A DNA stretch of 64,000 bases, taken from assembly GCA_963922205.1 (NCBI GenBank), contig CAWUHX010000005.1, positions 2,012,623 to 2,076,622 of the forward strand, in the 5' to 3' direction. The notes under the pieces were generated by a model that saw only the letters and a program-made list of their open reading frames with translations, ran no database searches and had not been told where the DNA came from. Origin of the DNA: Romanomermis culicivorax (Eukaryota; Nematoda; Enoplea; Mermithida; Mermithidae). The translations under genes were made by a program, and so were the position numbers. Below, piece after piece: positions 1 to 7,548 of this stretch; position 1 is the first letter of the stretch, and each line of letters begins with the position of its first letter.

Positions 1-3000
1 CTGACCTTTTCGCGGCCGAATTGTCAGTTTGAATTCGGCGAGCGCGAGTCCCCACGGAGCGATCCGAGCAGAGGGGTTAGGCTTCTCCAACACTGCTTTG
101 ACCGCGGTATGGTCAGTCTGGACGACCACTTCGTGCTGGAAGAGGTATGGTCGAAAGTGCTTGACGAAATGGACAATAGCGAGAGTTTCCAGTTCTGTAA
201 TGGAATAGTTTTTCTCAGCCGCTGTTAACCCTCGGCTGACGTACGCGACAGGATGGTCGTATCCAAGTTCGTCTAACTGGCTTAGAATCGCTCCTATCCC
301 CGAAATACTTGCATCAGTTTGAAGGTTAAAGGATTTCGAAAAGTCCGGATGGCGCAGGATAGGAGGGTTGGTCAGCAGGCGGCGGAGTTCATCGAACGCC
401 TCCTGCTGGGGTTTTGACCACTGGAAAGTAGTTTCTTTCCGTAAGAGCTTGGTGAGTGGCTCGCTGAGCCGGGCACAACCAGGGATGAAACGCCTGTAGT
501 AAGACACGAGGCCTAGGAAGGACTTGATGTCTTTGGCCTTTTGTGGAATGGGTAGGTGTTGGACGGCAGCCAGCTTGGCTTGGTCAGGTTCTAGGCCGCT
601 CTGTGAGATGCGATAGCCTAGGTACTCTACCTCTGAGTGCGAGAATTTGCACTTGCTCAGTCTGAGCTTCATTCCACCCCGGCGAAGACGGGCGAACACA
701 TCTGCCAGGCACTCAAGCATTTGGGTGTGAGAGTTCCCGAACATCAAAATGTCGTCGAGATAGGTCAGAACCGTGCGCCATTGGATTCCAGTAAGGAGGA
801 GGTCCATAAGGCGTTGAAATGTCCCCGGCGCGTTGCACAAACCGAAAGGCGAATAATTGAATTCGTAAAGTCCAATAGGCATATTAAATGCCGTCTTTTC
901 CTTATCCGCCTCGGCAATCGGGATTGACCAATAAGCGTTAGCCTGGTCAAGGGTAGTGAAATACTTCATACCCTTGAGTGTGTCGAGAATGTCATCTATC
1001 CGTGGGAGAGGGTAGACATCCTTTTTCGTGACCTCGTTAAGACCACGAAAGTCAACACACATATGGTGAGATCCGTTTTTTTTGACAGTATTAGTAGCCC
1101 ACGGTGACGTGCTTGGCCGAATAATACCTTTCTCCTGGAGCGCCTTGACCTCCTGCATGATGAGATCCTTTTCCTTAGGTGAGGACCGGTAAGGGAAACG
1201 GCGGACTGGGCGGGCATCGCCCGTGCTGATTTGGTGCTGGACGAGATCAGTGGAACCTGTGTCCTTTTCATCAAGAGCATAAAGGTCGGTGTATGCAACC
1301 AGCAGATCGAGTAAGGCTGCCCGGTCCCGAGGGGAGATGTCCGGTGAGATTACAGCCTTGGCCTCGACCCACTGACGATCGAGGATGGTGTCTGAGTCGA
1401 CCGGTGATTCCCGTGAGGGCTCACTATGCATTTGCACATGACCGATGGTCATATGCAGGTAGAGAACCACGGAATGAGTATTCGGGTTAACTACTTGAAG
1501 TGGTATGTGACCGTTGGTCACGCTACTCACGCTTCCAGCAAAATATACGTTTCTTTGAGATCCCGTGAGGTGCTTTGGGAAAAAGGCCACCTCAGGTACG
1601 TTCGTATAGATTGGTGGAACAGGTACAGTGAATCGTGTCAGGGAGCGAGGCTCCAGAATTACCAAGTCCTTCAGGGGCGAGGCGCCGCAGGCAGAAGGTG
1701 GGCTGTGGATGAGACCGTCACAGGGGATTCTACTTTCCTTGAACTGGAGGAAGGATTTCTCCCAGTTCAAGCTGACACAATTGAACTGGCCGAGGAAGTT
1801 TGTCCCAAGGACCAGTTCAGTTGAACAGTTCTCCTGTATTTGGACCTGAATCCGTTTAGAGACATCAGCCACTGTAACCGTGATATAGGCTGCTCCTAGC
1901 AGTGGGATCGGGGACCCGTTGGCTGCGATAGGATGTGCCCTGGTTGGTGAAAGTGTCAAGTTGGGCAGCTGGGCCGCTAACTTGTGGTCCAGGAGTGAGA
2001 AGACAGCTCCTGTGTGGACCAGTGCCTTTGCTTCTACCCAGTTGTTGAGGAGAACTTTGATATGGGGTGTCCGAATATCATTTGGGTAAAAAGCAGAGAC
2101 CACATGACCGGAATCAGGTGTGGTGGCACCACTAGTGTTACCGGACCGCTTTGGAATCGGCAGTCCCGTATGACGTAGTAGACCTACTAGAGCGTATCCG
2201 ATGGAGGGTTCCGGGTCATTCAGAAGGGTGGACTCATCCTGTACCGTTAGTATGTGGTTTGAGTGGTCCCTTGGGCTCTGAGTAGCTCCTAGTGATTCAA
2301 TCTCGGTGTCTGATAGCGGTGGCGCGGTTGGCAGGGGTGATGCCGGAGCATCTGAATCACTTGGCTCACGGTATCCGCCTTTCTCTAGCGTAACTGGAGA
2401 GTTTCCTGGCGGAGGTCGAGGGCAACCTGACCCGTGCAAGGTCGACAAATGACGACTTGCCCGTCTGGAAGAGGCCCGGGATCCCCTGGTTGACCCACGT
2501 GATGAGGCAATTGAGGAGGCCCGTGAGTGTGGCCGAGAGATGGACGAAGCCCTGGACCGCCATCGTGATCCCGACCTGTGTGAGCTTCGTGAGAGAGCAT
2601 GGGTGTTCTCCCACCAGGGGTCGATCTGGTCAATCTCCGGCGTGGTCAGCAGGAGGGGTAATTCTACCGCGTCCAGCCGACAAACATTACGTTGGTAGTC
2701 AAACATAATGTTCTTGAACTGTTCTAAGAAGTCCAGTCCGAGTATGAGGTCAACAGGTGCCCAGAAGGGAGACGTAGTCTTGCACACATGGAGATGTATA
2801 TCGATCCGTGTGTTCGGCTGGCGGTTTCCGGGCAACATGATTTCATATGGTCCCGAAAGGATGGTATGAATGGCTTTACCATTGATGCTCATCAATGGGT
2901 TAAAGTCGTGATGTTGCTGGAACGCCATGACCGCCTTCGGACTTTCTTTAGCCAAGGCCTTATGGAGACCTTGGCTAATGATAGTGCGAGGGCAACCCGT

Positions 3001-5800: not shown

Positions 5801-7548
5801 CTAGGATCACCTGAAGAAGGTAGTATACCTGACAAATTCATGGGCTCGACCTGGTCGAGGACTTCCATAGCCGAATCCGTTGGGATCGAAGGCAGTGGTC
5901 CTGGAGGGACGATGCGGGCCGGTGGCACCGGAGACGTCGTGTTTACCGCTGGAGCTGGCTCGGCAGTCGTGGTTTTACGGATGCAATACGATGCGAGGAT
6001 GTTAGCCTGGCCAACAAACTGCGGTGTCGTCGAGGGGTCCAGAGTGACCGGCATTGCATACTTTGGTGGTGGTGGTGGCAGCGGTATGTCCGATACATTT
6101 ATCGGTACGGGTACCTGGGCTGCTTGGACCACTGAAAATCCAATACTGATTACGCAGACAGGATAACACTGTTGTGAAGAATCTGTCAGGTGTTCAGCAA
6201 GTGCCTCATCATCCAGATCAAGGGGATCTGGATGGGGAGGGCCATCGGTAGCCCCAACGGCATTGTTGCGAGGTATGGGCTGCGGATATTGGTTTCCCAT
6301 CCCGTTAGGAGGGTGATAACCATTTCTCTGATTATACACATTTGTCCCCTGGGAAGAATAACCAGTATTTTGGTAGTCATTCTCACCCGTGTTTGCCGGA
6401 TTGTGCTGCGGACAGGCAGTTGATCGGTGCACTTGCACTTGACGACAATGAGGGCATGGCCTGTCACATCGGTCCATGGGGTGGGCACGTGTACGGCAAA
6501 AATAACAGTGACCTCCGTTAGCGGTGTTGTTACTGGGAGTGGTACCGGTGGGACGCTGGGCCCCGCAGTCGGCGTCGCTATGTGTACACAGTCCGTGGAA
6601 GGAGCACGTTTGAAGGTGTGCTCCCGACGAGCGTCGCCCGGCGGACTGATTTGGTGTCGACGGCTGTGGAGGCGGTGTCTGTTGGATTGGCGGGGGTGCA
6701 CGTTGCTGGGCCGTGAGCTTCGCTACGTGGGCCGTGAGCCTGGCCATTTCCTGTTTCAAGCGGCGAACCTCATCGGCGGAGGATGACGACGTTGGAGCAT
6801 TGCTCTGACGACCGTTTGCGCTTCTGTTAGGCATATCGGGATTATATCCGGCGTGTTTAGGTTCTGAAGAGAAAACGGCGTTAGATGGAGCAGTGTACGG
6901 GATCTCGTCCCGAAAGATTTGGGATTCTGCGTAACAGGCTGCCTTGAGTGTCTCTTCAAGAGTCGTGAACTCCCTAAACTTGATACTATCTCGGAGGACC
7001 GGCTTCAGTCCTCGCAGAAAGATAGGTTTGATGATAGAATCTCGGACATCCGTCGCGAGATCTGGATACGCTACCCTGGATAGTCTCTTGAGGTGCTCAA
7101 GGTAGACTATCGCGGACTCTGTCGGTTTCTGCAGTCGATCTTGGATCAGCTGCTGATGCAGATCAGAGTCGCGCCCTACCGGAAAATCTCTCCGTAGAAA
7201 AGCCGTAAACTCTTCGTAGCGGGTAGGTATTGGAGTGCTGCTGCTAAGGTCCCGGTAGGAGGCGAGAGCAGGACCCGTGAGGCATGACTCCAGAAAGGAG
7301 ATTTTATATGCATGATCCGTTTCGCTTACACCCTGGAGTGTAAAGAAACGAGTAAGATGCGACATAAAATCGGTGATAGACTCACCAAAAGCACCGGAGA
7401 AGGTGGGAGGGGCCATAAAGCTGGACACGGGAGGGTGCCTCCGACCATTCATGGCCTCTAACTTTTGGTTGAGGGGTCCAAGAGCATTCTCAAATGCTGC
7501 CTGGACTTTGTTCTCGATCTGTGAAGGGAGATCAGCTTCCGACTTCAT
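5795..7548 (-). CDS. gag: Gag polyprotein (capsid and nucleocapsid)
   Basis: Structural protein that would package the element RNA. Residues about 45-235 follow the Ty3/gypsy retrotransposon gag pattern: a PPTFSG start, an FLESCLTGPAL helix, then LQKPTES..YLEHLKRL and FLRGLKPVLRDSI. Two CCHC zinc knuckles lie near residues 348-380, of form CX2CX4HX4C and CX2CX5HX4C. A proline-rich tail with PPPPP follows. There is no stop where gag should end: the frame stays open into the region overlapped by X and on into env (total 1,496 codons, 7548 to 3058). I take the functional gag end to be near 5800, where the protein quality drops and the -1 frame becomes good. The start is the first ATG, but the frame is open about 55 codons further upstream. 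Confidence 0.85.

What the first reader, a model, noticed from the sequence alone, without database searches (positions are those of the whole stretch)
1..7548. LTR retroelement with gene order gag-env-pol
On the minus strand gag (zinc knuckles near 6510-6410) is followed by a signal-peptide-plus-TM glycoprotein (4932-3058) and only then by protease, RT and RNase H (3057 to 1). Known retroviruses and env-bearing Ty3/gypsy, BEL/Pao and Copia elements place env after pol. An uninterrupted, non-rearranged env upstream of pol would be a new retroelement architecture.
Basis: partly seen in the sequence, partly recalled or inferred. Interest (0 to 1): 0.92.

Follow-up and report, generated by a model that had tools for sequence, protein, structure and literature searches.

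The report
Nematode retroelement carrying envelope before polymerase
A virus-like mobile element, present in many copies in a mosquito-killing roundworm, carries its envelope protein in the middle of one long protein, between the shell and the copying enzymes, an arrangement reported before only for giant elements in flatworms as far as we found.

Summary
The window lies in a 359,112,060-base, 595-contig assembly that matches Romanomermis culicivorax v2 (mermithid nematode). On the minus strand is one complete 16.2-kb Ty3/gypsy-type insertion: LTRs 99% identical, 4-bp target duplication, no N, order gag - env - PR - RT - RNase H - IN, no env after IN. The glycoprotein matches Pfam PF24664 (mononegavirus-type fusion protein). 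Of 71 env copies scored, 40 lie in one open frame of 3079-3116 codons. Ten of ten copies checked at both ends show the same order. A second family (RT 60% identical) has it too; a third has gag-env in one frame. Env and pol are under purifying selection, the gag-env linker frame is kept open, and 16 of 30 copies lack an ATG at env, so env is probably made inside a Gag-Env-Pol polyprotein with an internal signal peptide. A conserved gene, X, overlaps the linker in the -1 frame. The order is not new in principle: planarian Burro elements have env in frame between gag and pol (PMC6431247). New here: another phylum, a compact element, several families, and overprinted X.

The parts
11242..12645 (-). 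5' LTR (TGTCACGTG...CACGTGACA); partner 3' LTR lies left of the window at L009 about 6038-7486
   Evidence: two pieces, 99.1 and 99.2% identity; ends; 13 mismatches in 1409 aligned, 33 gap columns
12646..12649 (.). target site duplication, GTAT read on the element strand; same 4 bases outside the 3' LTR
11230..11241 (-). primer binding site-like TGGCGAGGCTGG directly after the LTR; TGGCGAGGnTGG in 10 of 10 other copies
7549..11229 (-). 3.7-kb leader; its longest stop-to-stop frames (about 100-150 codons) were listed but not tested for selection
5733..7548 (-). gag (capsid, knuckles at 6412-6507); C-terminal end not sharply defined
   Evidence: dN/dS 0.28 for its last part, about 5733-5902
4961..5722 (-). 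gene X, -1 frame, overprinted on the gag-env linker; stop at 4961-4963 in 30 of 30 copies; the window copy has an extra stop at 5462-5464
4933..5732 (-). gag-env linker in the polyprotein frame: amino acids unconstrained but frame kept open
3061..4932 (-). env: fusion glycoprotein, PF24664
4843..4899 (-). internal signal-peptide-like hydrophobic stretch (env residues 12-30)
3211..3267 (-). transmembrane-like stretch (env residues 556-574)
3058..3060 (-). in-frame stop between env and pol, in this copy only (1 of 30)
2668..3057 (-). first protease-like stretch (DTG in 29 of 30 copies, 1 not matched by the pattern); Pfam scores below cut-off
1786..2055 (-). second protease, PF13975; motif DTG in 27 of 30 copies, HTG in 1 (the window reads HTG), 2 not matched
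607..1083 (-). reverse transcriptase (YLDD)
31..420 (-). RNase H; pol runs on past base 1 into integrase (L009 8007-9623)

Best explanation
It is an endogenous, recently active, env-bearing Ty3/gypsy-type retroelement of a mermithid nematode whose single long frame encodes Gag - linker - signal peptide - Env - TM - PR - PR - RT - RNase H - IN. Shown from sequence: the order, the single frame, the copies, and selection on env, pol and on the openness of the linker. Inferred: the genomic RNA is translated as one polyprotein; the internal signal peptide takes the chain into the ER, leaving Gag in the cytosol, Env in the lumen and, after the TM stretch, Pol back in the cytosol; host signal peptidase frees Env from Gag, and the element's protease, which directly follows the Env tail, cuts Env from Pol. 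Gene X, in the -1 frame of the linker, is a real extra protein, more likely made from a spliced RNA than by frameshifting: a pyrimidine-rich acceptor-like stretch (TTTCTTGTTCACAG in the window copy) ends 23 nt before its first ATG. Env was presumably acquired from a mononegavirus-like glycoprotein, probably class III, before the families split, so the element may make enveloped particles or spread between cells.
For: Window copy: LTR pair, TSD, IN, no second env, no N. 71 env copies scored, window copy included, 40 of them in frames of 3079-3116 codons. 17 of 17 plus-strand loci among 30 align to window gag upstream and window pol downstream (the other 13 were not turned there and were turned and read). 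10 of 10 copies fetched at both ends have LTR-leader-gag on one side and IN-tail-LTR on the other (their RT stretch was not fetched, but lies in the open frame); exact 4-bp TSD in 7 of 10; LTR divergence 0-2.4%. dN/dS in 18 of 30 copies: env 0.17, pol start 0.16, X 0.22, against 1.63 for the polyprotein frame within X. Yet new stops in that frame are too few: 1 seen, 10.8 expected, P 2.4e-4, while the third frame has 16 against 10.8. Env's first codon is ATG in 14 of 30, TTG in 14, TTC in 2; in those 16 the next in-frame Met is residue 69, past the signal peptide, and copies with 0, 2 and 3 LTR mismatches are among them. Second family at C98: gag, knuckles, signal-peptide-like stretch, env, RT and RNase H in one frame. 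Third family at C78: knuckles, signal-peptide-like stretch and env start in one frame of 2527 codons. Weak gB-like hits.
Against: No RNA or protein data. An in-frame Met 62 codons before env is present in 30 of 30 copies, so env could start there, and for the stretch after it the stop deficit is not significant (0 against 1.8, P 0.16). Young copies with an ATG at env exist too (C112 and C5, 5 and 6 LTR mismatches). UUG starts and splice sites that would remove X-env or make env alone were not excluded. The stop test uses related copies and a Poisson model; codon-shuffle P values were only 0.0015-0.03. The window copy itself is broken by a stop. AlphaFold gave no usable env model (mean pLDDT 28.9), so class III rests on weak sequence hits.
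Confidence: 0.66

Rival explanations
1. Env (or Env-Pol) is translated from a spliced subgenomic RNA starting at the AUG at env or at the AUG 62 codons upstream, and Gag-Pol from an RNA with X-env spliced out; the single frame is incidental.
For: Acceptor-like pyrimidine tract before X; upstream AUG in 30 of 30 copies. Cer1 of C. elegans makes its extra protein from a spliced RNA with an exon in another frame (PMC10309623, passages).
Against: Deficit of new stops in the linker frame upstream of that AUG too: 1 seen, 9.0 expected, P 0.0012. The C98 copy keeps gag, linker and env in one frame although no long overlapping frame constrains it.
Confidence: 0.25
2. Env is a dead passenger in an ordinary gag-pol retrotransposon.
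For: The window copy has a stop after env, and its second protease motif is changed.
Against: Env dN/dS 0.17, like pol at 0.16; env open in young copies and present in several diverged families.
Confidence: 0.05
3. The order is an assembly join or a rearrangement of one copy.
For: None found.
Against: No N, LTR pair with TSD, same order in 10 of 10 further copies and in a second family.
Confidence: 0.01
4. X is the end of Gag reached by -1 ribosomal frameshifting, so that most Gag stops at 4961 and only non-shifted ribosomes make Env and Pol. Compatible with the main reading.
For: X is in the -1 frame and overlaps the end of gag; its stop is present in 30 of 30 copies.
Against: By eye no canonical slippery heptamer at the switch in the 12 copies printed, and the shift of constraint falls near X's first ATG at 5722, at 60-base resolution.
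Confidence: 0.2

Closest known systems
Burro / GYPSM1 giant Gypsy-like elements of planarians (PMC6431247, section 7 read)
   Same: Gypsy-like, one very long ORF, env in frame between gag and PR, env region with hits to mononegavirus fusion glycoproteins.
   Different: Burro is over 30 kb with BIR, MATH/TRAF, BCL2 and other domains; here 16.2 kb, none of these over cut-off in the pieces scanned, and an overprinted gene X. Host phylum differs.
Atlas virus of the hookworm Ancylostoma ceylanicum (PMC9094657, passages)
   Same: Nematode LTR retroelement with a captured viral glycoprotein in a single polyprotein without stop or intron (2828 residues).
   Different: Order Gag-Pol-Env, BEL/Pao lineage, class II phlebovirus-like Gc.
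Cer1 of C. elegans (PMC10309623, passages)
   Same: Nematode Ty3/gypsy, no stop between gag and pol, an extra protein (CERV) with an exon in another frame.
   Different: [quoted passage not shown] X sits between gag and env.
Anakin, Pao elements with chuvirus glycoprotein in mosquitoes (PMC7642597, passages)
   Same: Glycoprotein captured from a negative-strand RNA virus (chuvirus) by an LTR element.
   Different: BEL/Pao, not Ty3/gypsy; gene order in Anakin not established from the passages seen.

Membership tests
Metaviridae / Ty3-gypsy LTR elements | LTRs, PBS, short TSD | tested here: met
   the tRNA behind the PBS was not identified
Metaviridae / Ty3-gypsy LTR elements | PR-RT-RNase H-IN order | tested here: met
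Metaviridae / Ty3-gypsy LTR elements | Ty3-type capsid | tested here: inconclusive
   PF19259 E 4.8e-6 but 26.6 bits against a cut-off of 29.1
Metaviridae / Ty3-gypsy LTR elements | RT groups with named Ty3/gypsy references | tested here: inconclusive
   Tree of 30 rows, mostly unnamed proteins; window and C98 sister at 100/100, wider place open
Burro-like elements | env in frame between gag and PR | tested here: met
Burro-like elements | giant size over 30 kb and BIR/MATH/BCL2 domains | tested here: not met
   16.2 kb; no such hit over cut-off in the pieces scanned (the 17-residue BH4 match is below cut-off, and the leader was not scanned)
Burro-like elements | common descent of env and pol | not testable with these tools
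   no Burro sequence held
Monjiviricetes fusion glycoproteins (PF24664) | profile match over the curated cut-off | tested here: met
   46.8 bits over 27; P0001 50.7 bits
Monjiviricetes fusion glycoproteins (PF24664) | class III fold | tested here: inconclusive
   weak gB hits E 0.34, 1.6 and, for P0001, 1.3e-4 below cut-off; model failed
Belpaoviridae / Atlas type | env after pol | tested here: not met
   about 0.5 kb between pol stop and 3' LTR in the window copy, and IN-tail-LTR in 10 of 10 others

The most novel reading that the evidence does not exclude
A diversified group of nematode retroviruses expresses its envelope only as an internal, membrane-inserted segment of a Gag-Env-Pol polyprotein, flavivirus-like in topology, and one family has evolved a new protein by overprinting the gag-env linker in the -1 frame.
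Probability: 0.5. Interest if true: 0.8.

Novelty: new variant of a known kind. Interest (0 to 1): 0.62.

Why it matters
Retroviral env is usually the last gene, made from a spliced RNA (recalled). A second case of env inside the gag-pol frame, in another phylum, with intact young copies and selection on the joint frame, shows that this order and single-polyprotein expression can last in evolution. Whether it shares descent with Burro is open. It makes a question testable: how a retroelement puts Env and Pol in fixed ratio and on opposite sides of a membrane. X looks like a gene born by overprinting in a retroelement.

Tried and rejected
Rejected: assembly join, single rearrangement, env as relic (see rivals). 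Readthrough of the stop at 3058 as a normal signal: rejected, since 29 of 30 copies have no stop there. Canonical -1 slippery site for X: none seen by eye in 12 copies. SL1 RNA to place the host: no match, uninformative since no control rang. Viral contigs: 42 pattern matches, no relative of env. Rfam: nothing at gathering score in the window. X: no Pfam hit up to E 10, one chance-level PDB hit, E 0.087; X was not sent to the large protein database (its 3 searches went to env, pol and COX1). AlphaFold of env failed, so no fold search was run. A genome search with RT for env-less relatives did not complete, and the LTR count likewise; so the direction of env gain and the total copy number are not shown.
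Full report
Where it is. The window is contig C5, 2012623-2076622, of an assembly of 359,112,060 bases in 595 contigs. Its COX1, read with code 5, is 97% identical over 98% to Romanomermis culicivorax and 84% to the next species listed, and the published R. culicivorax v2 assembly is 359.1 Mb in 595 scaffolds (PMC10879605, passages). So the host is this mermithid nematode, a parasite of mosquito larvae.

The element. On the minus strand, from window 12645 to about L009 6038, lies a 16.2-kb LTR element. 5' LTR 11242-12645, PBS-like TGGCGAGGCTGG, 3.7-kb leader, gag from 7548, env 4932-3061, pol from 3057 through base 1 to L009 8004, about 0.5 kb, 3' LTR. The LTRs differ at 13 of 1409 aligned positions, with 33 gap columns, and the 4 bases outside them are GTAT on both sides. 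There are no N. Integrase has HHCC-like and DD35E patterns.

The glycoprotein. Env matches PF24664 (Monjiviricetes fusion glycoprotein) at 1.5e-12, and Borna G at 7e-4, the latter below cut-off. One database protein, P0001, of unnamed source (it may come from the same or a related worm), matches at 4.2e-83 with 37% identity over 69%; it hits PF24664 and, below cut-off, Borna G and herpes gB. A two-sequence profile gives only weak gB chains in the PDB (E 0.34 and 1.6, beside an unrelated receptor at 0.51). I read this as a class III fusogen of mononegavirus type, on sequence alone; the structure model failed.

Copies. The env search in the genome scored 71 copies, the window's included, a lower bound; 40 of 71 lie in open frames of 3079-3116 codons and 31 in shorter ones. 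I took 30 of the 71 with 1.5 kb on each side. Of the 17 on the plus strand, 17 align to window gag upstream and window pol downstream; the 13 minus-strand loci, the window copy among them, were not turned in that call and were turned. Ten copies, all with frames of 3079 codons or more, were fetched at both ends: 10 of 10 have LTR, leader and gag before, and integrase, tail and LTR after. Their RT stretch was not fetched; it lies in the same open frame. LTR divergence runs from 0 to 2.4%. An exact 4-bp TSD is seen in 7 of 10, 3 of 4 bases in one, none in two; for C5 and C251 I took the outer of two candidate ends.

One frame. In the window copy gag-env and pol are in the same frame, parted by one stop, which none of the other 29 copies has at that place. 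26 of 30 copies are open in this frame over the 900 bases before env, while the third frame holds 5-11 stops.

Gene X. Between about 5722 and 4961 variable sites favour the second codon position of the polyprotein frame (38 of 113, against 13 of 113 and 22 of 114, for 5443-5782), which is the third position of the -1 frame; in 60-base bins most but not all show it (5243-5302 does not). In 18 of 30 copies (12 with stops or frame breaks in their pieces left out; the window copy kept) dN/dS is 0.22 in the -1 frame and 1.63 in the polyprotein frame; env has 0.17 and the start of pol 0.16. So X is a real protein, 237 residues from its first ATG in copy L014, with an acidic C-terminus; its stop is present in 30 of 30 copies. 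It has no relative in Pfam. The window copy carries an extra stop inside X, as L018 also does.

Is the polyprotein frame used across X? Its amino acids there are not conserved, but stops are avoided: 1 new stop seen against 10.8 expected (P 2.4e-4), while the third frame has 16 against 10.8; upstream of the in-frame AUG at -62 codons it is 1 against 9.0 (P 0.0012); after it 0 against 1.8 (P 0.16, no evidence); in the 18 copies 0 against 6.5 (P 0.0015). Codon shuffling gives the same sign, P 0.0015-0.03 in nine copies, which are related to one another. Env has no ATG at its start in 16 of 30 copies, among them copies with LTRs differing by 0, 2 and 3 bases; 14 of 30, some also young, do have it. 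This fits translation of Env within a Gag-Env-Pol chain. An AUG 62 codons upstream in 30 of 30 copies leaves another route open.

Other families. With P0001 as query the genome gave 81 matches, among them frames of 2471, 2514, 2527 and 2536 codons with env about 40% identical to P0001, and also members of the window's own family. In one copy of the C98 family gag capsid (34% identical to the window's), two CCHC knuckles (read from the printed translation), linker, a signal-peptide-like stretch, env, RT and RNase H lie in one frame; on the same strand the longest other frames over the linker are 114 and 60 codons. Its integrase was not read. Its RT is 60% identical to the window's and sister to it at 100/100 in a tree of 30 rows. 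So the order is a property of a group, not of one copy; X was found in the window's family and not in the two other linkers read (longest other frames there 114 and 94 codons).

Mechanism. Most likely the chain is threaded through the ER membrane: Gag in the cytosol, Env in the lumen behind an internal signal peptide, Pol in the cytosol after the TM stretch, where a protease-like domain (DTG in 29 of 30 copies) follows at once, with a second, clearer protease behind it. These steps are inferred from sequence.

What is known. Burro of planarians has env in frame between gag and PR and was called the first such case (PMC6431247, section 7). Atlas virus of hookworm is a single Gag-Pol-Env polyprotein (PMC9094657, passages). 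Cer1 lacks a stop between gag and pol and has an extra protein with an exon in another frame (PMC10309623, passages). My searches for gag-env-pol order, for Romanomermis retrotransposons and for nematode viral glycoproteins in such elements listed no title that names this nematode element; the library is open-access only, the lists were capped, and I opened few of the papers. Abstracts and outlines alone of PMC12440569 and PMC9040795 were seen.

Verdict. It is a new variant of a known but, as far as I found, very rare kind.

Noticed in passing
window 23938-24459 and 29470-30015, minus strand: Two serpin exons or genes (PF00079 E 6e-20 and 1.3e-12).
   Followed up: partly
window 54385-54880, 58172-58822, 55992-57073: Long 5-bp arrays (TATAC, ATATC; 96% matches) and a 182-bp tandem repeat of 6 copies.
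   Followed up: no
window 1786-3057, minus strand: Two protease-like domains in tandem in the pol of this family; the second has HTG instead of DTG in the window copy.
   Followed up: partly
L060 (C117:992573-993922): A COX1 open under mitochondrial code 5 (11 TGA inside) on a contig at least 994 kb long: nuclear copy or mitochondrial piece joined in.
   Followed up: no
window 10184-10238: A run of 55 T (A on the element strand) in the leader.
   Followed up: no
C46:1430257, C5:2939062, C8:1017679 and other places: Many RT matches in frames of about 2011-2050 or 2233 codons: other large one-frame retroelement families, not checked for env.
   Followed up: no
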